Source: Mycobacterium stomatepiae (GTDB lineage Bacteria > Actinomycetota > Actinomycetes > Mycobacteriales > Mycobacteriaceae). Taken from it: 64,000 bases of DNA. The position numbers and the translations under genes are program-made. Location: contig NZ_AP022587.1 of the NCBI RefSeq assembly GCF_010731715.1, forward strand, positions 2,914,001 through 2,978,000. Direction: 5' to 3'. Shown in pieces: positions 28,855 to 64,000 of the stretch; the first letter of the stretch is position 1; every line of letters starts with the position of its first letter. The notes beneath the pieces were generated by a model. It searched no databases, was not told the DNA's origin, and was given only the letters and a program-made list of their open reading frames with translations.

Positions 28855-28883
28855 GTCTTATCAGGTCTTTCTCTCGCGCGCGG

Positions 28884-29842: not shown

Positions 29843-30495
29843 TACTTCTCACCTCGTTTGATCGCGGTGCGAACCACAACAAGTCCGCCGGTGCGGCCGG
29901 GGACCGCACCCTTGATCAACAGCACGCCGTTCTCGGCATCCACCTTGTGCACCACCAGGTTCTGCACGGTCACCCGGTCATTACCCATCCGACCCGCCAT
30001 CCGCGTGCCCTTGAAGACACGCGCGGGAGTGGCGCAGCCACCGATGGAACCCGGACGACGGTGCACCGCCTGGGCACCGTGGCTGGCGCCCTGACCGCGG
30101 AAGCCATGACGCTTCATGGTTCCGGCGAAGCCCTTGCCCTTGGAGGTACCGGTCACGTCGACATAGGCGCCGTCGGCGAAGATCTCCGCCGTCAGCTCCT
30201 GGCCGACCTCGTATTCGGCGGCCGCCTCCGGGTTGTCCAGGCGCAGCTCGGCCAGGTGCCGGCGCGGGTTGACGCCCGCGGCGGTGTACTGACCCGTGAC
30301 GGGCTTGTTGACCTTGCGTGGGCTGATTTCGCCATAGGCCAACTGCACGGCGCTATAACCGTCGAGTTCCGGGGTGCGGATCCGCGTGACCACGTTGGGC
30401 CCCGCCTTGACCACAGTCACCGGCACGACCCGGTTGTTCTCGTCGAACACCTGCGTCATGCCCAGCTTGGTACCCAGAATGCCTTTTCTTGCCAT
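29842..30495 (-). CDS. rplC: 50S ribosomal protein L3
   Basis: The 217-residue L3 starts [19 protein letters not shown] and has the [44 protein letters not shown] loop that reaches the peptidyl-transferase centre. Length is normal, and there is a 15-bp gap from rpsJ. Confidence 0.98.
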
Positions 30496-33260: not shown

Positions 33261-33406
33261 AAGGCGTTCAACGGCATCGCTCTTAGGGTATCCAGCACGG
33301 CGGGGCGCGGAACTTACATGACTATTGGGACAAATTGCACCCAGGATCAGAGGGCTTGACATACCGTCGTGCCATACTGGCGCCAAGCAGGCGAAAGGAG
33401 GTTGTG

Positions 33407-34717: not shown

Positions 34718-36280
34718 TTAGTCGACGGTGCCAGCCAGGCCGAAGTCAGCCAGTGTCTTTTCAGCCAACTCATACAAGGCCCGCCGTGTGTTCTGTGCAC
34801 CCGGTTGATAAGCGTAGATACTGAGCCGAATCGAGTCTTGGAGGAGCCAAGACTGCACGACCATTTGGCCGCCGGCTCGTTCAAGGCACTGTCGACTTTC
34901 GTGCTGGTTGACCACTCGCGCCATGATCCACTCAGAGTCAGTGCCGTCAAGACGACAGAACACCGGGTCCACCTCGCCGAGGTAAGAGCAAATCACCGTG
35001 GAATTAGGGTCGGCGAACATCGCATCGAACATCCGTTTCCACACCCGCTTCCTCCTGAACCCAACCAACCGGAGGTACTGCGATGAATCATCGCCCGCCT
35101 CCCGTAGCGTCCTCAGCCCCTGCCTGATGCCGGCACGCACCTCACGCAGATCTATCGTTACCAGCGTCGGATCGAGGCTAGTGGTCACCGAAGTGGTTAC
35201 AAATGACGTTGCGTTCGCATGCGTCTCCCCCGCCGGGCGCCCGCTAATCGGCAAGGACAAAGTGACGGCACCGTCACCAGGACGTTGACGCCCCATGCGC
35301 TCCGCAAATTTCGCAGTCCACCCGGCAACTAACGTCTGAGTCGTCCCGCCAAGAGCGTCCGCACAAGCCTGCCAATCATCCAAGCTGACCTGGATCGTGA
35401 CAGTGGGCGCGACGACGGTGTCATCGTCGTCGCCTTCGTTGACGTTGACGTTGACGTTGACGTTGGTGGGAGGCGATACCGATGGCTGGCCAGCACCTCG
35501 AAGGCGACGAGCCCGTTTTGTCACCGCGGCAGCCGCACGGGCAACTTCCGGTACATCCCGTATGGTCCGGCGGGCGTCCTGAGCGAGCGCGCGCCGTCGA
35601 GTGCGCGAATCCGGCGGCGGCAAACCCAGATCGCGTGTGTTGCCCAAGACCGCATCGGTGACCTCGGCGATAAGCCCGAAACCATCGATTAGATAGTGGG
35701 AACACACCAAGGTAACCGCGGTCGAACCGTCCGTCAGGGGAAGAACACCGAGATGCCAACCGGGACCGCGCTCCGGGTCTACGGGCACTAGTGAGCGCTC
35801 ATCAGCCCAATCACTGAGTTCAGCGCGTGGACGGGCGCACTCAGCGATATCGATGTCCACCGGTTTCTCGCCTAACACCCACCTATTCCGGGCAAACTTC
35901 AGCGGCGAACGCTCGATACGCCGTCGCAATAGCCCCAGACCGAGATTGTGGTGAAACTGCTTGAGGCCATCGAGGTCGATATCGGTGTCATAAACCCACA
36001 CACATTGGATAACCGCATTGCACCCGATGGCGCGATGCAATGTGAAAAAGCCGTTATCGCCGAAAGCGAGCGAATGGTCCCGTTGTGTATCAACGTCGGA
36101 TGCGCGGCGTTTACGAGCGGCTCGTGAAAGGCGCCGGGGGGCTGACACGGACCGACTTCCTGCCAGACGGGATTCCTCCGGACCGCTTTGCAGAACGTAC
36201 GCGTGGTCACGAAGTTCCAGGCGACGCCGCGCGGCGTCAAGCTCGCCAGCTAATGCCAACGAATTAAGTGTTCGAGACAT
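34718..36280 (-). CDS. Condensation/PapA-like acyltransferase coupled to the NRPS
   Basis: The 520-residue protein has the acyltransferase motif HxxxDG in VCSHYLIDGFGLIAE and a two-lobed layout like NRPS condensation, PapA and WS/DGAT enzymes. The second lobe includes VTLSLPISGRPAGETHANATSFVTT and VICSYLGEVDP. A linker holds a low-complexity NVNVNVNVNE-GDDDD insert between the lobes. The ATG overlaps the NRPS stop (TGATG), so translation is coupled. It probably acylates, esterifies or otherwise tailors the NRPS product. It is not a PKS-type free-standing carrier protein or a thioesterase. Confidence 0.75.
   Translation of the reverse strand: MSRTLNSLALAGELDAARRRLELRDHAYVLQSGPEESRLAGSRSVSAPRRLSRAARKRRASDVDTQRDHSLAFGDNGFFTLHRAIGCNAVIQCVWVYDTDIDLDGLKQFHHNLGLGLLRRRIERSPLKFARNRWVLGEKPVDIDIAECARPRAELSDWADERSLVPVDPERGPGWHLGVLPLTDGSTAVTLVCSHYLIDGFGLIAEVTDAVLGNTRDLGLPPPDSRTRRRALAQDARRTIRDVPEVARAAAAVTKRARRLRGAGQPSVSPPTNVNVNVNVNEGDDDDTVVAPTVTIQVSLDDWQACADALGGTTQTLVAGWTAKFAERMGRQRPGDGAVTLSLPISGRPAGETHANATSFVTTSVTTSLDPTLVTIDLREVRAGIRQGLRTLREAGDDSSQYLRLVGFRRKRVWKRMFDAMFADPNSTVICSYLGEVDPVFCRLDGTDSEWIMARVVNQHESRQCLERAGGQMVVQSWLLQDSIRLSIYAYQPGAQNTRRALYELAEKTLADFGLAGTVD
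35438..35465 (+). repeat. Hexanucleotide microsatellite (GTTGAC)4 inside the acyltransferase gene
   Basis: Four perfect copies of GTTGAC plus a partial GTTG encode NVNVNVNVN on the minus strand, followed by an acidic run of Asp codons. The 6-bp unit means copy-number changes keep the frame, so length variation would alter the inter-lobe linker without inactivating the enzyme. Confidence 0.8.
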
Positions 36281-39200
36281 CAGAGCAGTCCGAGCTGTTG
36301 CAGGTTGGTGATGTATTGGATGATGATCGGCGCCGTGACGTGGGGGATGTCGTTGGTGGGGCCGATTTGGGCTTGTTGCACCGCTGCACGGAATCGGTCG
36401 GTCGATGGTGTGCGTTCACGGGGCGGCGGTGGGGCTTTGAGCTCATTGGAATCACGCTGCAACACCATCTCCAACAGTGAGTGCTGACGCTGTGGTTCCG
36501 TTAAAGCACGCAGGCCAGTCTCCAACCGCTGAAACCACTCCCCGAAGTCATCGACACGCTCGATCGGGTAGCCGGCTTCAATCACCCAGTCGACGTACTG
36601 ATCGGGTCCGATGCCGTCGTCGTCGTGAGGGTTCATGACGTGATAGGTCTCGAACCCGTCGGTTACTTGGGCGCCCAGCGTTGTGATCGCCTCGGCAACG
36701 AACTCGACGGGTAGTCCGTTGAAGTGCGTGGGCTGCCGATTGCCCGCGTCGTCGAGTTGGAAGAACGAGGTCGGTGCCACCCGGTGGCCACCACGCTGAG
36801 CACCGTCCGGGTGACCATGTCCGACATGTGGAGCTGGCCCGTATACGTGGTGTCGGCAAGGATCATCCCGGAACGAAATACCGCGACCGGGAGCCCGCAT
36901 AGGTCGTTAGCTTCCCGTAGTAGCACCTCACCAGCCCATTTGCTGTTGCCATAGCCATTGGTCGGGCTGTTGTCGACGACCCGGGTCGGGCTGATACTGC
37001 GGATGTCCGCATCCTCGGTAAACGAGGCCGGCTCGATCTGGCGGCCCACATCGGCGGTCGACACGTACGTGAACGGCTTGAGCCTGGTGGTGAGTGCGAG
37101 TCGGATCAGCTCGGCAGTGCCCACGACGTTAGACGCAAACACTTCGCTGTAGGGCAGAAAGCCGTTGACATGGGCTGCTGAATCGACAATCAGATCGACA
37201 GTCTCGGCCAGCCGCTGCCAGGTTTGCTGGTCCACGCCCATGTTGGCTTGGCCCTTATCGCCGGCAAGGACCTCCAGATGATCGGCGGCCAGTTCCTGGA
37301 AATGACGCAGCAACTGCGCGTCACCGCTGTCGAAAGTCTTCTCCAAACGTTGGCGAGCATCCTCATCGGACTTCGCCCGCACCAGGCAGACCAGCTTGCC
37401 GCCGGCCCGCTCCATCCGTTCGAGCCATTCCAGTGCCAAGTAGCGTCCGAGGAATCCCGTAGCTCCGGTGAGCAGAACAGTCCGCGCCTCTGTGACCGGA
37501 CCCGGCACCGTGGTGGCGCCGGCCAATGTCTCGGCATCGATGAATTTGTCCAGGGTCAGATCGCCGGCATGCACCTCGGTGGCGCCGCGGCCGTGTACGG
37601 CCGCATAGAGCTCCGACACTGCCTCCTGCGCGCTGGTGTAGTTCTGCACCTGCTCGTTCAAGCCGCTCACGGACGGCGCGTCGAAGACCGTGCGTACAGC
37701 CAGGTTGGTGCCGAAGGCGTTGTTGACTGCGGCGAGCACCCGCATCACCGACAACGAATCCCCACCCAGATCGAAGAAGGAGTCATCAACCCCGACCCGC
37801 TCCACACCCAACACTTGGGCGAAAATCCCGGCCAGGATCTCCTCAGCGGCGCTTTGCGGTGCCCGATACCGTTGCGCATCCCCATATTCAGGAGCCGGCA
37901 ACGCCCGCACATCCAACTTGCCGTTGACCGTCAACGGCAACACATCCATAACGACCACAGCCGCGGGCACCATATACGACGGCAACCGCCGCCCCAGCTC
38001 CTCGCGCACCACCACCGAATCCACCATCCCGGCCACGGATTCGGTGACATAACCGACCAGCCGCTTGACCCCCGGCGTGTCCTCACGCGCGATCACGACC
38101 GCCTGATCCACACCCTCTAAACCAGCAAGTGCTGCGCGTACTTCACCCAACTCAATGCGATACCCACGAATCTTGACCTGCTCATCAACACGCCCCACAT
38201 ACCGCAACTGACCATCCGGACCCCAGGACACCACATCCCCAGTCCGATACATCCGCGCACCCACACCCCCAAACGGGCACGCCACAAACCGCGAACCAGT
38301 CAACCCCGACCGACCCACATACCCCACACCCACACCACGACCAGCCACATACAACTCACCGGCCACACCCACCGGCACCGGACGCAACCACCCATCCAGC
38401 ACCAACAACGCCGCCCCCGACACCGGCCCACCAATCGGCGCCACACCCGATTCCGCCACCATCGGTGCACTAAATGTGGCAAATACCGTGGTTTCGGTGG
38501 GGCCGTAGCCGTTGATCATCACCCGGCCGGGCGCCCACTGCTCCACTAATTCAGGTGGGCATGCTTCACCACCGAGCAGCAATGCCACTGATTCCAAACC
38601 CTGCGGGCTCAATGCTGCGACCGCTGACGGGGTCTGGGCCAACACCGTGACCTGCTCGGCCACCAACAGGGCGTGGAAATCCTGCGGCGAGGCGACCACG
38701 TCCTCGGGCACCACGACTAGGCGCCCGCCATGCAGCAGTGCGCTCCACAGTTCCCATACCGAGAAATCGAAGGCATAGGAGTGGAACTGCGTGCACACCT
38801 GCCCCGCCGACAACGCGAAAAGTGCATCCGGTTGTTCGAAGAGCCGGGTGATGTTGTGGTGGGTGACAGCAACACCTTTAGGCACACCGGTGGTGCCCGA
38901 GGTGTAAATGACATACGCAATATCGTCAGGAGCCGGACCCGCGGTCACCGCGGTCGCCGGTTGAGCCGCGATCGCCGGGTCATCAACATCAATGACCCAC
39001 AGATCACGGCCAGCCAGACCCTCGAGGCGCTCAGCAAGGACCGCTGTGGTGATCACCGCGACCGGCGCGGCATCGGTGAGCACGAACTCGATGCGGGTAT
39101 CAGGCACACTGGGATCGATCGGGACATAGGCCGCCCCCGACTTGAGCACCCCCACAATCGCGGTGATCGCCTCAACTGAACGCGGCATCACCAACGCCAC

Positions 39201-40862
39201 ACACTGCCCAGCCCCCCACACCACGGCCAACCAACCACTGCGCCACCCGGTTTGAAGCCTCATCCAGTTGCCGATACGTCAACGACGCACCAGCGAAACT
39301 GACCGCCACCGCCTCTGGGACGCGGGTGACCTGCTGGGCGAACAACGCCGGCACCGACACCGGTACGGGACCCACCACCTCGAGCACGTCGCGGTTACTC
39401 CACCGATCCAACCGCGCCCGCTCACCAGCCTCGAGCACCTCGATCGACGACAACCGGACACCCGGCTCAGCGGTCATCGCCTCCAACACCCGCTGCAACC
39501 GCTCGATCAACGTTTCGATCGTGGCGGGGTCGAACACATCAGTGCGAAACTCCACCGACCCTCGATCCCGGCGGGTTCACCCGTGGCAGTCCAACGTTCA
39601 GCCAACGACAACGACACATCCATGCGCGCGGTGCGCGTCTGCACCGGCACCGGAGTCAACGTCACATCACCTAACGCCAAACCCCCCGCCGAATCATCAG
39701 CACCCAAACCGAGGTTCTGCCACGCCAACATCACCTGAACCAACGGATGATGCGCCATCGACCGCGTCGGATTCAGGTGCTCCACCAGGACCTCAAACGG
39801 CACATCCTGATGCTCGAACGCTTCCAAACTGCGGGTACGGACTTGACCCAACAACTCCCCCACCGTCAGATCCGCACCCAGATCCACCCGTAACACCAAC
39901 GTGTTAACGAAAAACCCGATCAACGGCTCCAACGCCGGATCACGACGCCCCGCGATCGGGAACCCCACCGCCACATCAGAGCTGGCACTCAGCTGCGACA
40001 GCAACACCGCCAACCCAGCCTGAACCACCATGAAACTCGTCGCGTTATGCGCACGCGCCACCGCAGCGATCCGCTGCTGCAACGACACCGGCCACACCAC
40101 GGGCACACTGGCTCCGCGCTGATCAGCGACCACCGGATACGGCCGATCCGTGGGCAACACCAACCGCTCAGGAAGCCCCGCTAACGCCTGGCGCCAATAC
40201 GCCAGCTGCCCCGCGATACGACTACCACTATCCGCGACATCACCGAACTGAGCATGCTGCCACAACGTGTAATCGACATACTGCACCGCCAACGGCTCCC
40301 ACCCCGGAGCCTGCCCGCCACAGCGCGCGGTATACGCCGCACCCAAATCCGCCACCAACGGTGCAATCGACAAACCATCAGCAGCAATATGGTGAGCCAC
40401 CGCCACTAACACATGCTCGACATCACTGACCCGGAAAAGCTTCGCCCGCAACGGAATCTCACGAGCCAAATCAAAACAATGCAACACCACCGCTTCAACG
40501 GCCCGCTCAAGCTCACCGGGCGCCCACCCCGCGGTATCGACCACGTCCCACCCGAAAACAGCATCTTCGGCGGCCACCACGACCTGGCGCGGGACCCCGT
40601 CAACCACCGCAAACACCGTCCGCAAACTCTCATGACGAGCCACCACATCAGCAAGCGCGGCCCCCAACACCACCGCATCCAACACCCCACTGATCCCCAA
40701 CACCGTCGGCATGTTGTACACCGGCGACGGCCCCTGCAACTGATCCAGGAACCACAACCGCGACTGCGCAAACGACAACGGCACCACCTGCGGACGCGGC
40801 CGCGCCACCAACGGCTCCACCACACCCCGACCACCAGCTGCATCCAGCCGGGCCACCAACCC
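36280..40862 (-). other. NRPS module 8: C-A-PCP-R, terminal reductase release
   Basis: LCL-type C domain (about 40862-39560), then an A domain with [36 protein letters not shown] and [13 protein letters not shown] read the pocket as D-F-W-A-L-G-G-V-F-K. The PCP is diverged after [11 protein letters not shown] ([21 protein letters not shown]). The C-terminal domain (about 37520-36283) is a thioester reductase: [17 protein letters not shown] (NAD(P)H site), YVSTADVG and [12 protein letters not shown] (catalytic Tyr/Lys). It reduces the PCP-bound thioester to an aldehyde or on to an alcohol, as proposed for GPL synthetases. Frameshifts lie near 39560, 39214 (one extra C) and 36781 (one base missing). 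Confidence 0.85.
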
Positions 40863-43800
40863 CGCCACCGTGGGCGCCTCAAACACCGCACGCACCGAAA
40901 GACCCACACCCAAACCAGAATTCACCGCGGCAACCACACGCATCACCGACAACGAATCCCCACCCAGATCGAAGAAGGAGTCATCAACCCCGACCCGCTC
41001 CACACCCAACACTTGGGCGAAAATCCCGGCCAGGATCTCCTCAGCGGCGCTTTGCGGTGCCCGATACCGTTGCGCATCCCCATATTCAGGCGCCGGCAAC
41101 GCCCGCACATCCAACTTGCCGTTGACCGTCAACGGCAACACATCCATAACGACCACAGCCGCGGGCACCATATACGACGGCAACCGCCGCCCCAGCTCCT
41201 CGCGCACCACCACCGAATCCACCATCCCGGCCACGGATTCGGTGACATAACCGACCAGCCGCTTGACCCCGGCGTGTCCTCACGCGCGATCACGACCGCC
41301 TGATCCACACCCTCTAAACCAGCAAGTGCTGCGCGTACTTCACCCAACTCAATGCGATACCCACGAATCTTGACCTGCTCATCAACACGCCCCACATACC
41401 GCAACTGACCATCCGGACCCCAGGACACCACATCCCCAGTCCGATACATCCGCGCACCCACACCCCCAAACGGGCACGCCACAAACCGCGAACCAGTCAA
41501 CCCCGACCGACCCACATACCCCACACCCACACCACGACCAGCCACATACAACTCACCGGCCACACCCACCGGCACCGGACGCAACCACCCATCCAGCACC
41601 AAAAAACCAAGATGGCTCAACGGCACACCAATCGGGGAAGCACTGCTGTCGACATCGCCGAGCGTGACCTCACGAAACGACGCATGCACCGTCGTCTCGG
41701 TGGTCCCATACATGTTGATCAACCGCGGCAAACCCGCATGGTTGTCCAACCACGCCCCCAGCCGCGCCGGCTCCAACGCCTCACCAGCGAACACCACAGC
41801 CTCAAGCGTGAGTTGACTCGCCAACTCACGCTGCGACACATCAACACTTTGCAACGCATAAAACGCCGACGGGGTCTGACTCAACACCGTGACCTGCTCG
41901 GCCACCAACAACGCATGGAAATCCTGCGGCGAGGACACCACCTCATCAGGCACCACCACCAGCCGGCCCCACGCAGCAGAGCACCCCAGATCTCCCACAC
42001 CGAAAAGTCGAAGCTATTGGAGTGGAACTGCGTCCACACACCTTCACGTGGCAGTCTGGAATCCAGCGAGTCGATCAGGTCGGTGACGTTGTGATGCGCA
42101 ATCCCAACACCTTTAGGCACACCGGTGGTGCCCGAGGTGTAAATGACATACGCAATATCGTCAGGAGCCGGACCCGCGGTCACCGCGGTCGCCGGCTGAG
42201 CCGCGATCGCCGGGTCATCAACATCAATGACCCACAGATCACGGCCAGCCAGACCCTCGAGGCGCTCAGCAAGGACCGCTGTGGTGATCACCGCGACCGG
42301 CGCGGCATCGGTGAGCACGAACTCGATGCGGGTATCAGGCACACTGGGATCGATCGGGACATAGGCCGCCCCGACTTGAGCACCCCACAATCGCCGTGAT
42401 CGCCCGAGCACCACGCGGCATCACCAACGCCACACACTGCCCAGCCCCCACACCACGGCCAACCAACCACTGCGCCACCCGGTTTGAAGCCTCATCCAGT
42501 TGCCGATACGTCAACGACGCACCAGCGAAACTGACCGCCACCGCCTCTGGGACGCGGGTGACCTGCTGGGCGAACAACGCCGGCACCGACACCGGTACGG
42601 GACCCACCACCTCGAGCACGTCGCGGTTACTCCACCGATCCAACCGCGCCCGCTCACCAGCCTCGAGCACCTCGATCGACGACAACCGGACACCCGGCTC
42701 AGCGGTCATCGCCTCCAACACCCGCTGCAACCGCTCGATCAACGTTTCGATCGTGGCGGGGTCGAACACATCAGTGTCGAACTCGAGACGAAGCGCCAAT
42801 TCATGGCCGGGAGCAACCTGAATCGACAAGGGATAATGGTTGTATTCACGGCTGCTAAACCCGGTGATCGCTAACCCGTCAGCACCCAGCGGGGCTCGGT
42901 ATCGACCGGGTAATTCTCAAACGCAAACAACGTGTCGAACAACCGGTCATGCCCGGCCACCCGGTGGATCTCGGTCAGCGAAAGATACTGATGATCCAAT
43001 ACTTTCACGTGCTCATCGGTGAGCTGCTCCAACAACTCGATACTCGTCGTCGCCGCGGTGATCGTGGCGCGTACCGGCACGGTGTTGATCAACAACCCGA
43101 CCATCGATTCCACACCCACCAACTCGGCCTCACGCCCGGAGACCGCAATACCGAACACCACATCCTGGTGACCGGTCAACGACACCAACAACTGCGCCCA
43201 ACCGGCCTGAAGCACCGTGTTGACCGTGGTGTGACAACGACGCGCCAACACACCGATCGCCTCAGTAAGCTCAGCGGTGAGTTCACACGATTCAATTCCG
43301 CGTTGCCCCAACACCATCGGCTCAGACGGACCCACCAACGTCGGAGTCTGCAACCCGGCCAACACTTCACCCCACGCAGCCCGAGCACGATCGAGGTCTT
43401 GCTCAGCCACCCACGTCACAAACCGGCGATACGGCGTCGCCACCGCCAACCGCTGCCCGTAATAACTAGCAAAGATCTCCTGCAACAAGATCGGCAACGA
43501 CCAGCCATCCAACACGATGTGATGATTAGTCAACACAAACCGGTACTGATCTGGTGCCGTGCAGATCAACGCCACCCGAGAAGCCGGCTGATGCTCCAGA
43601 TCACACACCGCGCCACGCTCAGCCGCACACACCTGCTCAATCTGCACCTCAACATCACCAGCATCAGCAGCGCAAGCCGTGAGGTCTACATACCGCCACC
43701 CCACCACAGGATCGGCCGAAATCACCTGCACCGGCTGATCGAACTGCTGGCTAAACCGCGCCACCAAATGCGGGTGACGACCCACCACCACAGCCACCGC

Positions 43801-52800: not shown

Positions 52801-55800
52801 CCGCCGACGGGGTCTGAGTGAGCACGTCGACTTTCTCGTCGACCAACAAGGCCTGGAAATCCTGCGGCGAGGACACCACCTCATCGGGCACCACCACCAG
52901 CCGCCCCCCATGGAACAGGGCACCCCAGATCTCCCACACCGAAAAGTCGAACGCATACGAGTGGAACTGCGTCCACACCTGCCCGGCTGACAACTCCAAA
53001 TGAGTATCGAACGAGTCGAACATCCGGGTGACGTTGTGATGGGTGACAGCAACACCTTTAGGCACACCGGTGGTGCCCGAGGTGTAGACGATGTGTGCAA
53101 TATCGTCAGGAGCCGGACCCGCGGTCACCGCGGTCGCCGGCTGAGCCGCGATCGCCGGGTCATCAACATCAATGACCCACAGATCACGGCCAGCCAGACC
53201 CTCGAGGCGCTCAGCAAGGACCGCTGTGGTGATCACCGCGACCGGCGCGGCATCGGTGAGCACGAACTCGATGCGGGTATCAGGCACACTGGGATCGATC
53301 GGGACATAGGCCGCCCCGACTTGAGCACCCCCACAATCGCCGTGATCGCCCGAGCACCACGCGGCATCACCAACGCCACACACTGCCCAGCCCCACACCA
53401 CGGCCAACCAACCACTGCGCCACCCGGTTTGAAGCCTCATCCAGTTGCCGATACGTCAACGACGCACCAGCGAAACTGACCGCCACCGCCTCTGGGACGC
53501 GGGTGACCTGCTGGGCGAACAACGCCGGCACCGACACCGGTACGGGACCCACCACCTCGAGCACGTCGCGGTTACTCCACCGATCCAACCGCGCCCGCTC
53601 ACCAGCCTCGAGCACCTCGATCGACGACAACCGGACACCCGGCTCAGCGGTCATCGCCTCCAACACCCGCTGCAACCGCTCGATCAACGTTTCGATCGTG
53701 GCGGGGTCGAACACATCAGTGTCGAACTCGAGACGAAGCGCCAATTCATGGCCGGGAGCAACCTGAATCGACAAGGGATAATGGTTGTATTCACGGCTGC
53801 TAAACCCGGTGATCGCTAACCCGTCAGCACCCAGCGGGGCTCGGTATCGACCGGGTAATTCTCAAACGCAAACAACGTGTCGAACAACCGGTCATGCCCG
53901 GCCACCCGGTGGATCTCGGTCAGCGAAAGATACTGATGATCCAATACTTTCACGTGCTCATCGGTGAGCTGCTCCAACAACTCGATACTCGTCGTCGCCG
54001 CGGTGATCGTGGCGCGTACCGGCACGGTGTTGATCAACAACCCGACCATCGATTCCACACCCACCAACTCGGCCTCACGCCCGGAGACCGCAATACCGAA
54101 CACCACATCCTGGTGACCGGTCAACGACACCAACAACTGCGCCCAACCGGCCTGAAGCACCGTGTTGACCGTGGTGTGACAACGACGCGCCAACACACCG
54201 ATCGCCTCAGTAAGCTCAGCGGTGAGTTCACACGATTCAATTCCGCGTTGCCCCAACACCATCGGCTCAGACGGACCCACCAACGTCGGAGTCTGCAACC
54301 CGGCCAACACTTCACCCCACGCAGCCCGAGCACGATCGAGGTCTTGCTCAGCCACCCACGTCACAAACCGGCGATACGGCGTCGCCACCGCCAACCGCTG
54401 CCCGTAATAACTAGCAAAGATCTCCTGCAACAAGATCGGCAACGACCAGCCATCCAACACGATGTGATGATTAGTCAACACAAACCGGTACTGATCTGGT
54501 GCCGTGCAGATCAACGCCACCCGAGAAGCCGGCTGATGCTCCAGATCACACACCGCGCCACGCTCAGCCGCACACACCTGCTCAATCTGCACCTCAACAT
54601 CACCAGCATCAGCAGCGCAAGCCGTGAGGTCTACATACCGCCACCCCACCACAGGATCGGCCGAAATCACCTGCACCGGCTGATCGAACTGCTGGCTAAA
54701 CCGCGCCACCAAATGCGGGTGACGACCCACCACCACAGCCACCGCATCACGCAACCGACCCACATCAAGAGCCCCCCGTAACGCAATATCGAGCTGCACC
54801 GCATACACATCACCGTGATCCCCCACCGCGCTGTGATCCGCCTGGGCGATATTGGCGTGAAAAGCAGCCCTGCTGCAACGGAGTCAACGGCAACACATCA
54901 GCCACCACACCCACTGACACCAACTCATCAATCTGCTGCTGACTCAACACCACCGGCGCAATATCAGACGGGGTCAACCCACCCCCGCCACCACGAACAC
55001 ACGCACACATCCCGGCCAACGCCTCAAACCACAACTCACTAAGCCGACCAACCGCCGCCTCATCGACCACCGAAGGCGCCCACATCCAGTTCGCACTCAG
55101 CGACGGGCCAGCAGCACCATCGATAGTGACCGCATTGAGTTCCACCGAGTGCGCCAACGGCATCGGTATCGCCCCAGTAACACCCACCGAGGACACACCC
55201 TGCTCACTGAAAAGCCATAACTCATCGGACAACTCGCCCGGGCCCGCACCCACACGCCCCAAATAGTTGAACCCGATGGTGGGTTCAGGCCCCGACAATT
55301 CCACCTCAGGGTTCAGATACCGCAACAACCCATACGTCACACCATCAGGCAACGCCCGTAATTGTTCTTTGACGTCTTTGATCACCGCACCCAACGCGGG
55401 ATCCCCGGCCACCACCTGCGCCCACGACAACCCACCCAGCCTCAACGACACCGGATACTTCGTCGTGAACCACCCCACCGTGCGCGACAAATCAACATCA
55501 CCAGCAAGCTCTTCGTGACGGCCGTGACCCTCAACATCAATACCCACCGGCACACCATCACCAGCACCAAGGAACTGCGCCCACGCCAACCCGTACGCAA
55601 TCAACAACATGTCGTTGATCCCCGCATGAAACGCCGCCGGCACCTCACCCAACAACATCCGAGTCGTCTCAACATCCAACGACGCCGACAACCGCCCCGC
55701 CGTAGCAAACGTATCCACACCCGGCGTCACCGCCGCCAACACCGCCGGGGTGTCCAACACCTGCTCCCACACCGGCAGCTGCGCAACAACCTCAGGCGCT

Positions 55801-58800
55801 AACGCATACTCGGCCAACACCGAGGACCACCGCTGAAACGACGACCCCGACGCCAACAACGCAATCGGCGCACCAGCCCGATGCTGAGCCCACCAATATT
55901 GATGTCTTCCAACAAGATCCGCCACGACACCCCATCAACAGCCAAATGATGCACAATCAGCACCAACTGAGCCGTCGAGGCCACCCACAACGCGCTGAGC
56001 ATCACCCCGGCAGCCGGATCCAACCGCGACCGCGCCCCTACCAACGCCTCATCACTGAGCACATCCACCGACGCCACACACCCCGCGGCATCCACCGACC
56101 CCGCCGGCGGCACCCACAACGACCAACCACCCACACCATCGTCATCCACACGCAACCGCAACATCGCATGCCGATCCAGCAGCGCCTGCACCACCACCAC
56201 CACATCAGCCAGGCCCACCCCGGCTGGAGCCGACACCACCACCGTCTGGTTGAACTGCCCTACCGGGCCATCCACACCCTGCAACCAACGAATGATCGGA
56301 GTCGCCACCACCGACCCCACACCCTCATCAACAGCCACCTCACCGGCAACCCCCACCACCCGAGCCAACCGCGCCACCGACTGCTCCACAAAAATGTCCC
56401 GCGGCCGACACACCAACCCCGCCGCACGAGCATGCCCCACCACCTGCATCGACAAGATGGAATCCCCACCCAGATCGAAGAACGAGTCATCAACCCCGAC
56501 CCGCTCCACACCCAACACTTGGGCGAAAATCCCGGCCAGGATCTCCTCAGCGGCGCTTTGCGGTGCCCGATACCGTTGCGCATCCCCATATTCAGGAGCC
56601 GGCAACGCCCGCACATCCAACTTGCCGTTGACCGTCAACGGCAACACATCCATAACGACCACAGCCGCGGGCACCATATACGACGGCAACCGCCGCCCCA
56701 GCTCCTCGCGCACCACCACCGAATCCACCATCCCGGCCACGGATTCGGTGACATAACCGACCAGCCGCTTGACCCCCGGCGTGTCCTCACGCGCGATCAC
56801 GACCGCCTGATCCACACCCTCTAAACCAGCAAGTGCTGCGCGTACTTCACCCAACTCAATGCGATACCCACGAATCTTGACCTGCTCATCAACACGCCCC
56901 ACATACCGCAACTGACCATCCGGACCCCAGGACACCACATCCCCAGTCCGATACATCCGCGCACCCACACCCCCAAACGGGCACGCCACAAACCGCGAAC
57001 CAGTCAACCCCGACCGACCCACATACCCCACACCCACACCACGACCAGCCACATACAACTCACCGGCCACACCCACCGGCACCGGACGCAACCACCCATC
57101 CAGCACCAACAACGCCGCCCCCGACACCGGCCCACCAATCGGCGCCACACCCGATTCCGGCACCAACGGTGCACTGATGGCCACACACATCGTGGTCTCG
57201 GTTGGGCCATAAGCGTTGAGCATCACCCGGCCGGTCGCCCACCGATCCACTACCTCAGGCGGGCAGGCCTCACCGACTGCGACGACGGTCACTGATTCCA
57301 AACCCCGCGGCGACAACGCCGCCACCGCCGACGGGGTCTGAGTGAGCACGTCGACTTTCTCGTCGACCAACAAGGCCTGGAAATCCTGCGGCGAGGACAC
57401 CACCTCCTCGGGCACCACGACCACCCGCCCCCCACGCAGCAGGGGCCCAAAGATCTCCCACACCGACACATCGAATGCCAACGAATGGCACTGAGGCCAA
57501 ACACCCTCGCGTGGCAGGCTGGAATCCAGCGAGTCGATCAGGTCGGTGACGTTGTGATGCGCAATCCCAACACCTTTGGGGGTGCCGGTGGTGCCCGAGG
57601 TGTAAATGACATACGCAATATCGTCAGGAGCCGGACCCGCGGTCACCGCGGTCGCCGGTTGAGCCGCGATCGCCGGGTCATCAACATCAATGACCCACAG
57701 ATCACGGCCAGCCAGACCCTCGAGGCGCTCAGCAAGGACCGCTGTGGTGATCACCGCGACCGGCGCGGCATCGGTGAGCACGAACTCGATGCGGGTATCA
57801 GGCACACTGGGATCGATCGGGACATAGGCCGCCCCGACTTGAGCACCCCACAATCGCGGTGATCGCCTCAACTGAACGCGGCATCACCAACGCCACACAC
57901 TGCCCAGCCCCACACCACGGCCAACCAACCACTGCGCCACCCGGTTTGAAGCCTCATCCAGTTGCCGATACGTCAACGACGCACCAGCGAAACTGACCGC
58001 CACCGCCTCTGGGACGCGGGTGACCTGCTGGGCGAACAACGCCGGCACCGACACCGGTACGGGACCCACCACCTCGAGCACGTCGCGGTTACTCCACCGA
58101 TCCAACCGCGCCCGCTCACCAGCCTCGAGCACCTCGATCGACGACAACCGGACACCCGGCTCAGCGGTCATCGCCTCCAACACCCGCTGCAACCGCTCGA
58201 TCAACGTTTCGATCGTGGCGGGGTCGAACACATCAGTGCGAAACTCCACCGACCCCTCGATCCCGGCGGGTTCACCCGTGGCAGTCCAACGTTCAGCCAA
58301 CGACAACGACACATCCATGCGCGCGGTGCGCGTCTGCACCGGCACCGGAGTCAACGTCACATCACCTAACGCCAAACCCCCCGCCGAATCATCAGCACCC
58401 AAACCGAGGTTCTGCCACGCCAACATCACCTGAACCAACGGATGATGCGCCATCGACCGCGTCGGATTCAGGTGCTCCACCAGGACCTCAAACGGCACAT
58501 CCTGATGCTCGAACGCTTCCAAACTGCGGGTACGGACTTGACCCAACAACTCCCCCACCGTCAGATCCGCACCCAGATCCACCCGTAACACCAACGTGTT
58601 AACGAAAAACCCGATCAACGGCTCCAACGCCGGATCACGACGCCCGCGATCGGGAACCCCACCGCCACATCAGAGCTGGCACTCAGCTGCGACAGCAACA
58701 CCGCCAACCCAGCCTGAACCACCATGAAACTCGTCGCGTTATGCGCACGCGCCACCGCAGCGATCCGCTGCTGCAACGACACCGGCCACACCACGGGCAC

Positions 58801-61800
58801 ACTGGCTCCGCGCTGATCAGCGACCACCGGATACGGCCGATCCGTGGGCAACACCAACCGCTCAGGAAGCCCCGCTAACGCCTGGCGCCAATACGCCAGC
58901 TGCCCCGCGATACGACTACCACTATCCGCGACATCACCGAACTGAGCATGCTGCCACAACGTGTAATCGACATACTGCACCGCCAACGGCTCCCACCCCG
59001 GAGCCTGCCCGCCACAGCGCGCGGTATACGCCGCACCCAAATCCGCCACCAACGGTGCAATCGACAAACCATCAGCAGCAATATGGTGAGCCACCGCCAC
59101 TAACACATGCTCGACATCACTGACCCGGAAAAGCTTCGCCCGCAACGGAATCTCACGAGCCAAATCAAAACAATGCAACACCACCGCTTCAACGGCCCGC
59201 TCAAGCTCACCGGGCGCCCACCCCGCGGTATCGACCACGTCCCACCCGAAAACAGCATCTTCGGCGGCCACCACGACCTGGCGCGGGACCCCGTCAACCA
59301 CCGCAAACACCGTCCGCAAACTCTCATGACGAGCCACCACATCAGCAAGCGCGGCCCCCAACACCACCGCATCCAACACCCCACTGATCCCCAACACCGT
59401 CGGCATGTTGTACACCGGCGACGGCCCCTGCAACTGATCCAGGAACCACAACCGCGACTGCGCAAACGACAACGGCACCACCTGCGGACGCGGCCGCGCC
59501 ACCAACGGCTCCACCACACCCCGACCACCAGCTGCATCCAGCCGGGCCACCAACCCGCCACCGTGGGCGCCTCAAACACCGCACGCACCGAAAGACCCAC
59601 ACCCAAACCAGAATTCACCGCGGCAACCACACGCATCACCGACAACGAATCCCCACCCAGATCGAAGAAGGAGTCATCAACCCCGACCCGCTCCACACCC
59701 AACACTTGGGCGAAAATCCCGGCCAGGATCTCCTCAGCGGCGCTTTGCGGTGCCCGATACCGTTGCGCATCCCCATATTCAGGCGCCGGCAACGCCCGCA
59801 CATCCAACTTGCCGTTGACCGTCAACGGCAACACATCCATAACGACCACAGCCGCGGGCACCATATACGACGGCAACCGCCGCCCCAGCTCCTCGCGCAC
59901 CACCACCGAATCCACCATCCCGGCCACGGATTCGGTGACATAACCGACCAGCCGCTTGACCCCGGCGTGTCCTCACGCGCGATCACGACCGCCTGATCCA
60001 CACCCTCTAAACCAGCAAGTGCTGCGCGTACTTCACCCAACTCAATGCGATACCCACGAATCTTGACCTGCTCATCAACACGCCCCACATACCGCAACTG
60101 ACCATCCGGACCCCAGGACACCACATCCCCAGTCCGATACATCCGCGCACCCACACCCCCAAACGGGCACGCCACAAACCGCGAACCAGTCAACCCCGAC
60201 CGACCCACATACCCCACACCCACACCACGACCAGCCACATACAACTCACCGGCCACACCCACCGGCACCGGACGCAACCACCCATCCAGCACCAACAACG
60301 CCGCCCCCGACACCGGCCCACCAATCGGCGCCACACCCGATTCCGGCACCAACGGTGCACTGATCGAGGCAAACACCGTCGCCTCGGTCGGGCCATAAGC
60401 GTTGAGCATCACCCGGCCGGTCGCCCACCGATCCACCAATTCAGGCGGGCAGGCCTCACCACCAAGCAGCAACGCCACCGATTCCAAACCCCGCGGCGAC
60501 AACGCCGCCACCGCCGACGGGGTCTGAGTGAGCACGTCGACTTTCTCGTCGACCAACAAGGCCTGGAAATCCTGCGGCGAGGACACCACCTCCTCGGGCA
60601 CCACCACCAGCCGCCCCCCATGGAACAGGGCACCCCAGATCTCCCACACCGACACATCGAACGCATACGAATGCCACTGTGACCACACACCCTCACGAGG
60701 CAGTCTGGAATCCAGCGAGTCGATCAGGTCGGTGACGTTGTGATGCGCAATCCCAACACCTTTAGGCACACCGGTGGTGCCCGAGGTGTAAATGACATAC
60801 GCAATATCGTCAGGAGCCGGACCCGCGGTCACCGCGGTCGCCGGCTGAGCCGCGATCGCCGGGTCATCAACATCAATGACCCACAGATCACGGCCAGCCA
60901 GACCCTCGAGGCGCTCAGCAAGGACCGCTGTGGTGATCACCGCGACCGGCGCGGCATCGGTGAGCACGAACTCGATGCGGGTATCAGGCACACTGGGATC
61001 GATCGGGACATAGGCCGCCCCCGACTTGAGCACCCCCACAATCGCCGTGATCGCCCGAGCACCACGCGGCATCACCAACGCCACACACTGCCCAGCCCCC
61101 ACACCACGGCCAACCAACCACTGCGCCACCCGGTTTGAAGCCTCATCCAGTTGCCGATACGTCAACGACGCACCAGCGAAACTGACCGCCACCGCCTCTG
61201 GGACGCGGGTGACCTGCTGGGCGAACAACGCCGGCACCGACACCGGTACGGGACCCACCACCTCGAGCACGTCGCGGTTACTCCACCGATCCAACCGCGC
61301 CCGCTCACCAGCCTCGAGCACCTCGATCGACGACAACCGGACACCCGGCTCAGCGGTCATCGCCTCCAACACCCGCTGCAACCGCTCGATCAACGTTTCG
61401 ATCGTGGCGGGGTCGAACACATCAGTGTCGAACTCGAGACGAAGCGCCAATTCATGGCCGGGAGCAACCTGAATCGACAAGGGATAATGGTTGTATTCAC
61501 GGCTGCTAAACCCGGTGATCGCTAACCCGTCAGCACCCAGCGGGGCCTCGGTATCGACCGGGTAATTCTCAAACGCAAACAACGTGTCGAACAACCGGTC
61601 ATGCCCGGCCACCCGGTGGATCTCGGTCAGCGAAAGATACTGATGATCCAATACTTTCACGTGCTCATCGGTGAGCTGCTCCAACAACTCGATACTCGTC
61701 GTCGCCGCGGTGATCGTGGCGCGTACCGGCACGGTGTTGATCAACAACCCGACCATCGATTCCACACCCACCAACTCGGCCTCACGCCCGGAGACCGCAA

Positions 61801-64000
61801 TACCGAACACCACATCCTGGTGACCGGTCAACGACACCAACAACTGCGCCCAACCGGCCTGAAGCACCGTGTTGACCGTGGTGTGACAACGACGCGCCAA
61901 CACACCGATCGCCTCAGTAAGCTCAGCGGTGAGTTCACACGATTCAATTCCGCGTTGCCCCAACACCATCGGCTCAGACGGACCCACCAACGTCGGAGTC
62001 TGCAACCCGGCCAACACTTCACCCCACGCAGCCCGAGCACGATCGAGGTCTTGCTCAGCCACCCACGTCACAAACCGGCGATACGGCGTCGCCACCGCCA
62101 ACCGCTGCCCGTAATAACTAGCAAAGATCTCCTGCAACAAGATCGGCAACGACCAGCCATCCAACACGATGTGATGATTAGTCAACACAAACCGGTACTG
62201 ATCTGGTGCCGTGCAGATCAACGCCACCCGAGAAGCCGGCTGATGCTCCAGATCACACACCGCGCCACGCTCAGCCGCACACACCTGCTCAATCTGCACC
62301 TCAACATCACCAGCATCAGCAGCGCAAGCCGTGAGGTCTACATACCGCCACCCCACCACAGGATCGGCCGAAATCACCTGCACCGGCTGATCGAACTGCT
62401 GGCTAAACCGCGCCACCAAATGCGGGTGACGACCCACCACCACAGCCACCGCATCACGCAACCGACCCACATCAAGAGCCCCCCGTAACGCAATATCGAG
62501 CTGCACCGCATACACATCACCGTGATCCCCCACCGCGCTGTGATCCGCCTGGGCGATATTGGCGTGAAAAGCAGCCCTGCTGCAACGGAGTCAACGGCAA
62601 CACATCAGCCACCACACCCACTGACACCAACTCATCAATCTGCTGCTGACTCAACACCACCGGCGCAATATCAGACGGGGTCAACCCACCCCCGCCACCA
62701 CGAACACACGCACACATCCCGGCCAACGCCTCAAACCACAACTCACTAAGCCGACCAACCGCCGCCTCATCGACCACCGAAGGCGCCCACATCCAGTTCG
62801 CACTCAGCGACGGGCCAGCAGCACCATCGATAGTGACCGCATTGAGTTCCACCGAGTGCGCCAACGGCATCGGTATCGCCCCAGTAACACCCACCGAGGA
62901 CACACCCTGCTCACTGAAAAGCCATAACTCATCGGACAACTCGCCCGGGCCCGCACCCACACGCCCCAAATAGTTGAACCCGATGGTGGGTTCAGGCCCC
63001 GACAATTCCACCTCAGGGTTCAGATACCGCAACAACCCATACGTCACACCATCAGGCAACGCCCGTAATTGTTCTTTGACGTCTTTGATCACCGCACCCA
63101 ACGCGGGATCCCCGGCCACCACCTGCGCCCACGACAACCCACCCAGCCTCAACGACACCGGATACTTCGTCGTGAACCACCCCACCGTGCGCGACAAATC
63201 AACATCACCAGCAAGCTCTTCGTGACGGCCGTGACCCTCAACATCAATACCCACCGGCACACCATCACCAGCACCAAGGAACTGCGCCCACGCCAACCCG
63301 TACGCAATCAACAACATGTCGTTGATCCCCGCATGAAACGCCGCCGGCACCTCACCCAACAACATCCGAGTCGTCTCAACATCCAACGACGCCGACAACC
63401 GCCCCGCCGTAGCAAACGTATCCACACCCGGCGTCACCGCCGCCAACACCGCCGGGGTGTCCAACACCTGCTCCCACACCGGCAGCTGCGCAACAACCTC
63501 AGGCGCTAACGCATACTCGGCCAACACCGAGGACCACCGCTGAAACGACGACCCCGACGCCAACAACGCAATCGGCGCACCAGCCCGATGCTGAGCCCAC
63601 CCAATATTGATGTCTTCCAACAAGATCCGCCACGACACCCCATCAACAGCCAAATGATGCACAATCAGCACCAACTGAGCCGTCGAGGCCACCCACAACG
63701 CGCTGAGCATCACCCGGCAGCCGGATCCAACCGCGACCGCGCCCCTACCAACGCCTCATCACTGAGCACATCCACCGACGCCACACACCCGCGGCATCCA
63801 CCGACCCGCCGGCGGCACCCACAACGACCAACCACCCACACCATCGTCATCCACACGCAACCGCAACATCGCATGCCGATCCAGCAGCGCCTGCACCACC
63901 ACCACCACATCAGCCAGGCCCACCCCGGCTGGAGCCGACACCACCACCGTCTGGTTGAACTGCCCTACCGGGCCATCCACACCCTGCAACCAACGAATGA
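36280..64000 (-). CDS. Giant nonribosomal peptide synthetase, at least 8 modules, 3' end in window, many frameshifts
   Basis: All sequence from the right edge to 36280 encodes consecutive NRPS domains on the minus strand, with no gap or start region that would divide it into separate genes. Order N to C: E (partial module) | C-A-PCP | C-A-PCP-E | C-A-PCP | C-A-PCP | C-A-PCP-E | C-A-PCP | C-A-PCP-R. That is over 9,000 residues in the window, and the gene continues upstream. The frame is interrupted about 35 times by single-base length differences, nearly all in short homopolymers (mostly C on the plus strand). Different copies are intact at different sites, so a full frame can be rebuilt by comparing copies. 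Product: a peptide of at least eight residues released reductively. Confidence 0.85.
40863..43955 (-). other. NRPS module 7: C-A-PCP (Thr-like pocket)
   Basis: The DCL-type C domain (about 43955-42800) has an intact start ([17 protein letters not shown]), unlike modules 2 and 4. The A domain shares the [10 protein letters not shown] and [14 protein letters not shown] core with module 6 but has FDFSVW. I read the pocket as D-F-W-S-V-A-M-V-H-K, close to the Thr code. There is no E domain, so an L-residue is expected. Frameshifts lie near 42896, 42367-42390, 41968 and 41268. Confidence 0.82.
42800..45790 (-). repeat. Near-identical NRPS block (PCP-E-C), copy 1 of 3
   Basis: The block PCP-E-C(DCL) at about 42.8-45.8 kb recurs at about 53.7-56.7 kb and again from 61.4 kb to the window edge. 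By eye the copies are virtually identical apart from one-base differences in homopolymers. The seven copies of the A-domain N-terminal segment lie about 3.2 kb apart, or about 4.5 kb apart when an E domain lies between. Such long direct repeats should recombine and collapse in assemblies. Confidence 0.8.
43956..48655 (-). other. NRPS module 6: C-A-PCP-E (D-residue, Thr-like pocket)
   Basis: LCL-type C domain (about 48655-47345). The A-domain core is of a different type from modules 2-5: [37 protein letters not shown] and [16 protein letters not shown] read the pocket as D-V-W-S-V-A-M-V-H-K. Positions 322-331 (M-V-H) match the known Thr code D-F-W-N-I-G-M-V-H-K, so Thr or a close analogue is likely. 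The PCP (LGGDSIL) is followed by an E domain (about 45430-43956). Frameshifts cluster near 46150 (8 A where module 7 has 6), 46935, 47355, 45826, 45864, 45400 and 45130. Confidence 0.82.
48656..51850 (-). other. NRPS module 5: C-A-PCP
   Basis: An LCL-type C domain (about 51850-50540) and an A domain with [26 protein letters not shown] and [16 protein letters not shown] read the pocket as D-F-W-T-L-G-A-V-V-K. The pocket differs from module 2 at two positions (236 and 331), so the substrates may be related. PCP is LGGDSLSV. Frameshifts lie near 51511, 50932, 50544 and 48655. The A domain runs unbroken from 50539 to the PCP. Confidence 0.82.
51851..54895 (-). other. NRPS module 4: C-A-PCP
   Basis: A DCL-type C domain (about 54895-53745) follows the module 3 E domain. 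The A domain (about 53745-52100) has [26 protein letters not shown] and [13 protein letters not shown] read the pocket as D-F-W-T-V-G-A-V-F-K. The segment around IGAEVC is unique to this copy. PCP serine motif LGGDSLSV is near 51945. Frameshifts lie near 54862, 53838, 53394 and 53316. Confidence 0.82.
53745..56760 (-). repeat. Near-identical NRPS block (PCP-E-C), copy 2 of 3
   Basis: Copy 2 of the PCP-E-C block. It shares the one-base deletion near 53838 with copy 1 (42896), whereas copy 3 (61545) is intact there. It has the longest uninterrupted PCP-E frame of the three copies and is a good reference for repairing the others. Confidence 0.8.
54896..59555 (-). other. NRPS module 3: C-A-PCP-E (D-residue, possibly aromatic)
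   Basis: The C domain (about 59555-58250) starts [17 protein letters not shown] and has [11 protein letters not shown], the LCL type. The A-domain core differs from the others: [26 protein letters not shown] and [16 protein letters not shown] read the pocket as D-V-W-T-V-V-A-M-C-K. W239, T278, A322 and C331 match GrsA (Phe, DAWTIAAICK), so an aromatic residue is a reasonable guess. The PCP has LGGDSILSM, the form that precedes E domains. The E domain spans about 56380-54896. This is the only LCL copy with an unbroken C-to-A junction (CCCC at 58252). Confidence 0.82.
59556..62610 (-). other. NRPS module 2: C-A-PCP (accepts a D-residue donor)
   Basis: The C domain (about 62610-61455) begins [11 protein letters not shown] and has [12 protein letters not shown]; this start is typical of C domains that follow an E domain (DCL). 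The A domain (about 61455-59800) has [39 protein letters not shown] and NGKLDVR. I read the ten-residue pocket as D-V-W-T-L-G-A-V-F-K; I cannot assign it securely. The PCP (near 59660) has LGGDSLSV, the phosphopantetheine serine. Frameshifts lie near 62575, 59966 and at the PCP/C junction near 59553. The A-domain half is the best-preserved copy. Confidence 0.82.
61455..64000 (-). repeat. Near-identical NRPS block (E-C), copy 3 of 3, cut by the window edge
   Basis: Copy 3 of the block covers the E domain and the following C domain; the PCP part lies beyond the right edge. The C domain here is intact from 62533 into the A domain, so this copy shows the correct reading across the C-A junction that is broken in copies 1 and 2. 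Confidence 0.78.
62611..64000 (-). other. NRPS module 1 (partial): epimerization domain
   Basis: The visible part is an E domain. It starts near 63990 ([16 protein letters not shown]) and has [18 protein letters not shown] (HHxxxDG), [19 protein letters not shown] and TIGFNYLGR, the core E motifs. The C, A and PCP domains of this module lie beyond the window. It makes the residue attached here D-configured. Apparent frameshifts lie at about 63712, 63787 and 63806, where runs are one base shorter than in the 56-kb copy. Confidence 0.85.

What the first reader, a model, noticed from the sequence alone, without database searches (positions are those of the whole stretch)
36280..64000. Very large mycobacterial NRPS with at least eight modules and reductive release
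Seven complete C-A-PCP modules plus a preceding E domain are visible, with E domains after visible modules 1, 3 and 6 and a terminal thioester reductase. The best-known mycobacterial cell-surface NRPS systems (GPL Mps1/Mps2) make a tetrapeptide ending in an amino alcohol. This one would make at least an octapeptide with the D/L pattern D-x-D-x-x-D-x-x, released as aldehyde or alcohol. The product is unknown to me and may be a new lipopeptide class. Domain order is read from sequence; the product is inference.
Basis: partly seen in the sequence, partly recalled or inferred. Interest (0 to 1): 0.8.

Follow-up and report, generated by a model that had tools for sequence, protein, structure and literature searches.

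The report
Eight-module mycobacterial lipopeptide synthetase, self-homogenised
A Mycobacterium related to M. montefiorense carries a giant enzyme gene that should build an eight-amino-acid surface lipid, and its eight repeating units have been copied over one another until they are almost identical except in the small patch that chooses each amino acid.

Summary
Window 36280-64000 (minus strand) has seven C-A-T modules, the E domain of module 1 and a terminal thioester reductase. The genome beyond adds module 1 with a starter-type C domain and an MbtH gene: eight modules, E after 1, 3 and 6, with T and C types that agree. The window part is split into 28 open pieces; two other NRPS loci of this genome are open, so unpolished read error in repeats is likeliest.

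Mycobacterial octapeptide synthetases are already known: M. abscessus GL8P (PMC11978893). The window enzyme shares eight modules, E at 1/3/6 and Thr1, Phe3, Thr7 codes, but differs in starter C, positions 2, 5, 6, 8 and reductive release.

The unexpected part is evolutionary. Module flanks are 96.5-100% identical within the genome but about 74-85% identical to the positional orthologue. The substrate-binding A cores stay divergent and pair by class across species. A second locus 1.18 Mb away shares the flanks. It is a strong new case of a known process.

The parts
36280..64000 (-). eight-module NRPS; the gene continues to window coordinate 67170 (ATG, genome 2981170); window part in 28 open pieces
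36280..37472 (-). terminal thioester reductase (TR), in two pieces; GATGFLG and YGNSK motifs
37700..40790 (-). module 8: C8 39409-40790, A8 38319-39342, T8 near 37766; variable A core 38468-38806
40900..43956 (-). module 7 (Thr-class core): C7 42641-43956, A7 41516-42574, T7 near 40964; core 41671-42041
44365..48584 (-). module 6 (Thr-class core) with E: C6 47204-48584, A6 46168-47137, T6 near 45519, E6 44365-45026; core 46227-46604
48700..51772 (-). module 5: C5 50393-51772, A5 49310-50326, T5 near 48757; core 49459-49791
51900..54832 (-). module 4: C4 53586-54832, A4 52499-53519, T4 near 51946; core 52648-52986
55314..59484 (-). module 3 (Phe-like core) with E: C3 58103-59484, A3 57023-58036, T3 near 56470, E3 55314-56257; core 57172-57504
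59650..62539 (-). module 2: C2 61292-62539, A2 60209-61225, T2 near 59657; core 60358-60690
63021..63680 (-). E domain of module 1; T1 near 64174, A1 (Thr-class) and starter C1 lie beyond the window end, up to 67170 (L011)
34718..36280 (-). intact acyltransferase-like gene directly downstream (WS/DGAT match below Pfam's cut-off; called PapA-like here); likely tailoring gene
28012..30495 (-). S10 ribosomal operon genes (L2, L4, L3) that mark one side of the conserved insertion site; not part of the pathway

Best explanation
This is a GPL/GL8P-like assembly line for a cell-surface lipooctapeptide. The starter-type C1 acylates residue 1. Eight modules then build acyl-D-Thr1-X2-D-Phe3-X4-X5-D-Thr6-Thr7-X8, where X2, X4 and X5 look aliphatic and X8 is open. 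The terminal TR reduces the thioester to an aldehyde or an amino alcohol, as the GPL Mps2 TR is known to do. A clustered glycosyltransferase, an acyltransferase-like protein, a P450-like protein and transporters probably decorate and export it. The modules evolve in concert: recombination among them, and with a two-module paralogue 1.18 Mb away, keeps each domain class (C after an L residue, C after a D residue, A flanks, T, E) almost identical within a genome. The roughly 340-bp A core is left divergent, presumably because converting it would change the product. Shown: domain order, identities, positional orthology, tree conflict. Inferred: substrates, acyl start, alcohol end, glycosylation, surface location, recombination as the cause, and selection as the reason the cores are spared.
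For: Domains. E after modules 1, 3 and 6 is matched by T domains reading GGDSI (3 of 3) against GGDSL (5 of 5), and by a separate C class at the next module (C2, C4, C7 about 100% alike; C3, C5, C6, C8 about 100% alike; about 60% between classes). The same rule holds in orthologue V (T: 2 of 2 and 4 of 4). Starter-type C1: its best solved relatives are the chains also hit by C1 of the GL8P-type locus, including CDA synthetase I (no extension C domain was run as a control). The Phe code at module 3 is identical to GL8P-type module 3. Homogenisation: flanks within W 98.3 and 97.3%, within V 98.7 and 97.0%, between 75.7 and 84.3%; cores 78.2, 80.6 and 72.7% (sliding windows; flanks cut further from the core). 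Flank tree: W and V each 100/100; core tree: a mixed-species Thr clade 97/99; a Thr clade in flanks is rejected, p-AU 6e-33. W and V are positional orthologues between the mycofactocin and S10 operons. W C1 against the paralogue's C1 jumps from 68-87% to 92-100% partway along. Control: of 18 NRPS loci processed 16 had two or more usable modules, and only W and V have all flanks near-identical with divergent cores. dN/dS 0.15-0.23 in four W-V module pairs.
Against: The frame is broken 27 times in the window part of this assembly. W C1 reads HHxxxDA where V and S keep HHxxxDG. No acyl ligase or PKS gene turned up among the neighbouring genes I scanned. The AU test does not reject W-only monophyly of cores (p 0.196). 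Substrate codes rest on a recalled residue register, and the GL8P paper itself mispredicted position 6 (Thr predicted, Leu found).
Confidence: 0.75

Rival explanations
1. The locus is a decaying pseudogene: the frame breaks are real and no product is made.
For: 27 junctions between open pieces, one of them in the same frame. The G142 two-module paralogue carries the same TAA codon in both modules, so disruption may occur in this family. W C1 has lost the Gly of HHxxxDG.
Against: 26 of 27 junctions are shifts. Frame-breaking gap events between copies touch homopolymers of 3 or more in 4 of 4 (A1-A3), 6 of 7 (E), 2 of 3 (C) and 8 of 14 (A8-T) cases. The six-module locus (frames 4454 and 3524 aa) and GPL locus (3438 and 2562 aa) of the same genome are open. 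V has open frames of 4760 and 3011 aa. dN/dS 0.15-0.23.
Confidence: 0.12
2. The repeated modules are an assembly artefact.
For: 300-bp blocks at 100% identity in seven copies. The M. montefiorense draft contig starts just before the acyltransferase-like gene, where an assembly of such repeats would stop.
Against: A cores differ between most modules, C and E order is coherent, and an independent single-contig genome has the same kind of line at the same site with six modules. Cores of W1, W6 and W7 are 96-100% alike, so the exact count could still be off.
Confidence: 0.06
3. No continuing conversion: each lineage recently amplified one module and then imported foreign A cores.
For: Recombination mostly exchanges A cores in other NRPSs (PMC8097286, passages). 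AU does not reject W-only cores. Near-identical module pairs with identical cores, i.e. plain duplication, occur in G340, G241 and G101.
Against: Same-class cores differ between W and V by about as much as the flanks do (Thr class 79-82%, W2/4/5 against V2/4 81-84%, W3-V3 82%; flanks 74-86%), as expected of cores inherited since the split. Two extension C classes are each homogenised separately in both genomes.
Confidence: 0.15
4. It is simply the GL8P synthetase of M. abscessus in another species.
For: Eight modules, E at 1, 3 and 6, Thr1, Phe3 (identical code) and Thr7 shared.
Against: Starter C only 26.7% identical to the GL8P-type one, while GL8P-type, GPL and six-module starters share 51-63%. 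Codes at 2, 5, 6 and 8 differ. The G087 line ends E8-C-T and the paper annotates a Te, not a TR. G087 also has a separate NRPS with the W-type starter.
Confidence: 0.1

Closest known systems
GL8P synthetase MAB_4691c/MAB_4690c of M. abscessus (PMC11978893; abstract, sections 6 and 12, part 1 of section 8, and passages read)
   Same: octamodular; D residues at 1, 3 and 6; Thr1, Phe3, Thr7; MbtH and glycosyltransferase genes nearby
   Different: GL8P has E at 8 as well and residues A2, I4, O-methyl-Y5, L6, T8; two genes; different starter C; the paper annotates a Te and I saw no TR in the G087 locus. The window line has TR release and self-homogenised modules
Mycobacterial GPL synthetase Mps1/Mps2 (own copy at 1170-1186 kb; identified by module pattern)
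   Same: MbtH gene, TR (74% aa over 184 residues to the own GPL TR), E domains
   Different: four modules with E at 1, 2 and 3; starter C 24% identical; no module homogenisation (preA flanks 66.8-74.4%)
M. avium R-variant lipooctapeptide and M. avium subsp. paratuberculosis PstA lipopentapeptide (as mentioned in PMC11978893)
   Same: lipopeptides longer than the GPL core
   Different: not compared by sequence here
Concerted evolution of PKS/NRPS modules, with syringopeptin NRPS and mycolactone PKS as extreme cases (PMC4256081, passages read)
   Same: domains of one cluster more alike than orthologous domains
   Different: here the A core is spared in a sharp window, two extension C classes are homogenised side by side, and a distant second locus takes part
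A-core recombination in NRPSs (PMC8097286 and PMC9205934, passages read)
   Same: the A core is the unit that differs between otherwise alike modules
   Different: there cores are imported by recombination; here flanks appear overwritten around inherited cores

Membership tests
multimodular NRPS | repeated C-A-T modules with intact core motifs | tested here: met
   HHxxxDG in C2-C8 and in E1, E3, E6; GGDS in 8 of 8 T domains
multimodular NRPS | single intact reading frame | tested here: not met
   28 open pieces in the window part of this assembly; sequencing error likely but unproven
lipopeptide NRPS | starter-type C domain at module 1 | tested here: met
   by sequence hits only; HHxxxDG degenerate in W
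lipopeptide NRPS | acyl chain on the product | not testable with these tools
   needs LC-MS
GL8P synthetase | eight modules, E at 1, 3 and 6 | tested here: met
   In G087 my scan matched three E motifs (1, 3, 8); its E6 is inferred from T6 type and spacing
GL8P synthetase | E domain at module 8 and a non-reductive end | tested here: not met
   module 8 is followed by TR
GL8P synthetase | A codes for T-A-F-I-Y-L-T-T | tested here: not met
   1, 3 and 7 agree, 4 is similar, 2, 5, 6 and 8 differ
GL8P synthetase | orthologous starter C | tested here: not met
   26.7% aa over 330 residues
GL8P synthetase | MmpL/MmpS genes beside it | not tested
   an MFS gene was found; MmpL was not searched for
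GPL Mps1/Mps2 | four modules, E at 1, 2 and 3, Phe-Thr-Ala-Ala codes | tested here: not met
   the genome has a separate locus that fits
GPL Mps1/Mps2 | terminal thioester reductase | tested here: met
concerted evolution | within-genome identity exceeds that between orthologues, by tree | tested here: met
   two genomes only
concerted evolution | specificity region exempt and older than the flanks | tested here: inconclusive
   mixed-species Thr clade 97/99, but AU against W-only cores p 0.196

The most novel reading that the evidence does not exclude
The line is a self-copying cassette system. Conversion keeps all connecting domains interchangeable across two loci, so A cores and whole modules can be reshuffled without breaking domain contacts, and the module number (2, 6 or 8) and residues of a surface lipopeptide change quickly between lineages. 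That would be a natural plug-and-play NRPS and a possible source of antigen diversity.
Probability: 0.2. Interest if true: 0.75.

Novelty: new variant of a known kind. Interest (0 to 1): 0.5.

Why it matters
It extends the lipooctapeptide class to relatives of M. montefiorense, outside the M. abscessus complex, with a reduced end. It also gives a clean natural map of which parts of an NRPS module are interchangeable and which roughly 340 bp carry identity, the practical question in NRPS engineering. And it suggests that such loci are easily broken or missing in draft and unpolished genomes, so surveys may undercount them.

Tried and rejected
Homology by the acyltransferase-like protein alone: 317 of 396 genus genomes have a relative (up to three candidates scored per genome); the closest outside the window's genome are G249 (87%) and G142 (66%), then 61%. 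A DNA search with a module flank scored two candidates per genome and matched in 250 of 396, so it cannot count clusters and I did not use it for distribution. A 'relatives' search covered 119 genomes at E <= 1e-180 and found only the window's own. Earlier literature searches did not list the GL8P paper; one search did. Calling the enzyme a GL8P orthologue was rejected on starter C and TR. Assembly duplication was rejected on core differences and the G142 orthologue. I did not use structure prediction, the large protein-database search, the phage/plasmid/E. coli collections or metagenome scans; one scan of genome contigs was used.

Results against my reading: AU does not reject W-only cores; W C1 has HHxxxDA. 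In the control two of 18 loci gave no usable modules (G142c, G221); G340 has two modules identical throughout, cores included, and G241 and G101 each hold a near-identical pair, cores included, which is plain duplication; G249c has cores (91.7%) more alike than flanks (59.5 and 79.4%). Besides W and V, holds 13 of the 47 starter-C places, picked by hand, plus the GL8P-type locus and two loci of the own genome; some stretches cover part of the NRPS only (G093: 20 kb of a longer frame). ownGPL gave 3 of 4 and own6 5 of 6 usable modules. In the V flank windows the core region ranges from 64 to 100%.

Full report
Names used.

Observation. The window is G000:C1:2914001-2978000 of a single-contig 6.21 Mb genome. 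The closest named relative of the gene beside the NRPS is M. montefiorense (84-87% aa), so the host is a related Mycobacterium whose name I was not given. Condensation, adenylation, carrier, epimerisation and reductase domains lie on the minus strand from 36280 to beyond 64000. The genome upstream gives the missing first module, starting with an ATG at window coordinate 67170 (L011:9629-11170), and an MbtH gene at genome 2981448-2981603. Order: C1-A1-T1-E1, C2-A2-T2, C3-A3-T3-E3, C4-A4-T4, C5-A5-T5, C6-A6-T6-E6, C7-A7-T7, C8-A8-T8-TR.

Frames. The window part, as I tiled it, falls into 28 open pieces with 27 junctions; 26 are shifts and one is in the same frame. Frame-breaking gap events between copies touch homopolymers of three or more in 4 of 4 (A1-A3), 6 of 7 (E), 2 of 3 (C) and 8 of 14 (A8-T) cases, the last partly because modules with and without E really diverge there. 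In the same genome the GPL locus (3438 and 2562 aa frames) and a six-module locus (4454 and 3524 aa) are open; the other clearly broken multi-module locus there, S, shares the repeats. This fits long-read error that short reads could not polish in repeats. That cause is inference; decay remains a rival.

D/L pattern. T domains before E domains read GGDSI (3 of 3) and the others GGDSL (5 of 5). C domains fall into a starter, a class after E (C2, C4, C7) and a class elsewhere (C3, C5, C6, C8). Each of the two latter classes is about 100% identical inside, and they are about 60% identical to each other. V obeys the same rule with E domains after modules 3 and 4. So D1, D3, D6 rests on three agreeing features. 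Residues by code, read by motif register (PheA positions recalled, not from a call): W1 DFWSVAMVH (Thr), W2 DVWTLGAVF, W3 DVWTVVAMC (Phe), W4 DFWTVGAVF, W5 DFWTLGAVV, W6 DVWSVAMVH (Thr), W7 Thr class by DNA (core about 100% to W1), W8 DFWALGGVF. Calibrators: the own GPL locus gives DFWTVAGVC (Phe), DYWSVGMVH (Thr), DVWCFAAIY and DVWGVAAIY (Ala), assigned by the known GPL order.

Start and end. C1 hits the same solved C domains as C1 of K, including CDA synthetase I, ObiF1 and EntF; V C1 does too. That the top hit 7c1k is a lipo-initiating starter C domain is recalled. No extension C domain was run as a control in that search. W C1 has HHxxxDA; V and S have HHxxxDG. The TR has a nucleotide-binding motif and YGNSK, and is 74% identical to the own GPL TR over 184 residues.

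Site and neighbours. The island lies between mycofactocin genes (MftF, MftE, MftD, radical SAM maturase) and the S10 ribosomal operon (L3, L4, L2). V lies at the same site, and in M. montefiorense the acyltransferase-like gene adjoins L3, L4 and L2. Cluster genes: P450-like (447 aa, below NCBIfam cut-offs), MFS transporter, EryCIII-like glycosyltransferase, SfLAP (Gap-like) protein, MbtH, NRPS, acyltransferase-like protein. The P450-like gene had no match in the V stretch searched.

Homogenisation. Within W, 400 bp around and before A3 are 98.3% identical on average and the A5-T stretch 97.3%; within V 98.7 and 97.0%; between W and V 75.7 and 84.3%. The A core is 78.2% within W (65.9-100), 80.6% within V (69.9-100) and 72.7% between (60.8-84.3). 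With flanks cut further from the core: W 98.3 and 99.5, V 99.1 and 99.5, between 73.9 and 84.9. In W, sixty-base windows are at 94-100% outside the core and 66-92% inside it. The flank tree separates W and V (100/100 each). The core tree has a Thr clade of both species (97/99). A Thr clade in flanks is rejected (p-AU 6e-33); W-only cores are not rejected (p 0.196). Same-class cores differ between species about as much as flanks do, which fits cores inherited since the split while flanks were overwritten. S shares 97-100% (before A3) and 95-100% (A5-T) with W modules, and W C1 against S C1 changes from 68-87% to 92-100% partway along, which looks like the edge of a conversion tract. Control: of 18 loci processed 16 were usable, and only W and V have all flanks near-identical with divergent cores; K flanks are 64 and 70% and the own six-module locus 72 and 74%. 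G340, G241 and G101 hold near-identical module pairs whose cores are identical too. dN/dS for W-V A5-T is 0.15-0.23 in four module pairs.

Known relatives. PMC11978893 (abstract, sections 6 and 12, part 1 of section 8, passages) describes M. abscessus GL8P: eight modules, predicted E domains at 1, 3, 6 and 8, peptide TAFIYLTT. G087 holds a locus with 8139 and 2756 aa frames, about 600 kb from frames that fit GPL, as the paper says of M. abscessus. Its codes, placed beside the published peptide, are Thr DFWSVGMVH, Ala DVWSVAAVY, Phe DVWTVVAMC, Ile DFWTVGVMW, Tyr DAESLAAIC, Leu DFWTLGAVY, Thr, Thr. My scan matched its E motifs at 1, 3 and 8; E6 is inferred from T6 type and spacing. W and K agree at 1, 3 and 7 and are similar at 4. 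Their starters are 26.7% identical. The W-type starter occurs in 42 of 396 sampled genus genomes at E <= 1e-100, the window's own included, so it marks a wider family. Concerted evolution and A-core exchange in NRPSs are published (PMC4256081, PMC8097286, PMC9205934; passages). I found no paper on this cluster in ten searches; the library lacks most subscription papers, and the GL8P paper's supplementary table of second loci in other species could not be read here.

Verdict. A real octamodular lipopeptide-type synthetase, ordinary in mechanism, with a published octapeptide precedent, and an unusually clear case of module homogenisation that spares the specificity core.

Noticed in passing
L057 (G142:C1:1764712 and 1767958): The two-module paralogue in G142 has the same TAA codon at the same place in both modules, whose 400 bp before A3 are 100% identical. 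A nonsense change may have been copied between modules, or it is a repeated base-call error.
   Followed up: partly
G000:C1:1790000-1797700 (L013): A two-module Thr-Thr NRPS with E, TR and a nearby MFS transporter shares the window's repeats and is also frame-broken; it would make an acyl-dipeptide.
   Followed up: partly
window 32406-33260 (+) and 33335-33856 (+): IS1-like transposase and a SocA-like antitoxin domain protein between the island and the S10 operon; the transposase has an 85% relative on the same side in G142.
   Followed up: no
window 38000-64000: Strong strand bias along the NRPS: GC skew about -0.20 to -0.38 and AT skew about +0.25 to +0.40 per 2 kb, unlike the rest of the window.
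   Followed up: no
G000:C1:4312000-4335000 (L054, L055): A six-module NRPS with five DFWTLGA[IV][MY] codes and a last Thr code, open in frame. The commonest code equals that of K module 6, where GL8P holds Leu.
   Followed up: partly
G087:C1:4820249-4828517 (L064): The GL8P-type second protein ends E8-C-T with no reductase seen, so how GL8P is released is open; the paper annotates a Te.
   Followed up: no
L079 (G249:C7:360001-370500): The opposite pattern: two modules with A cores 91.7% alike but flanks 59.5 and 79.4%, as if a core had been copied alone.
   Followed up: no
G093:C115 and G070:C24: Open NRPS frames of 10417 and 10696 aa in other mycobacteria, of the same order as or larger than the window's enzyme.
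   Followed up: no
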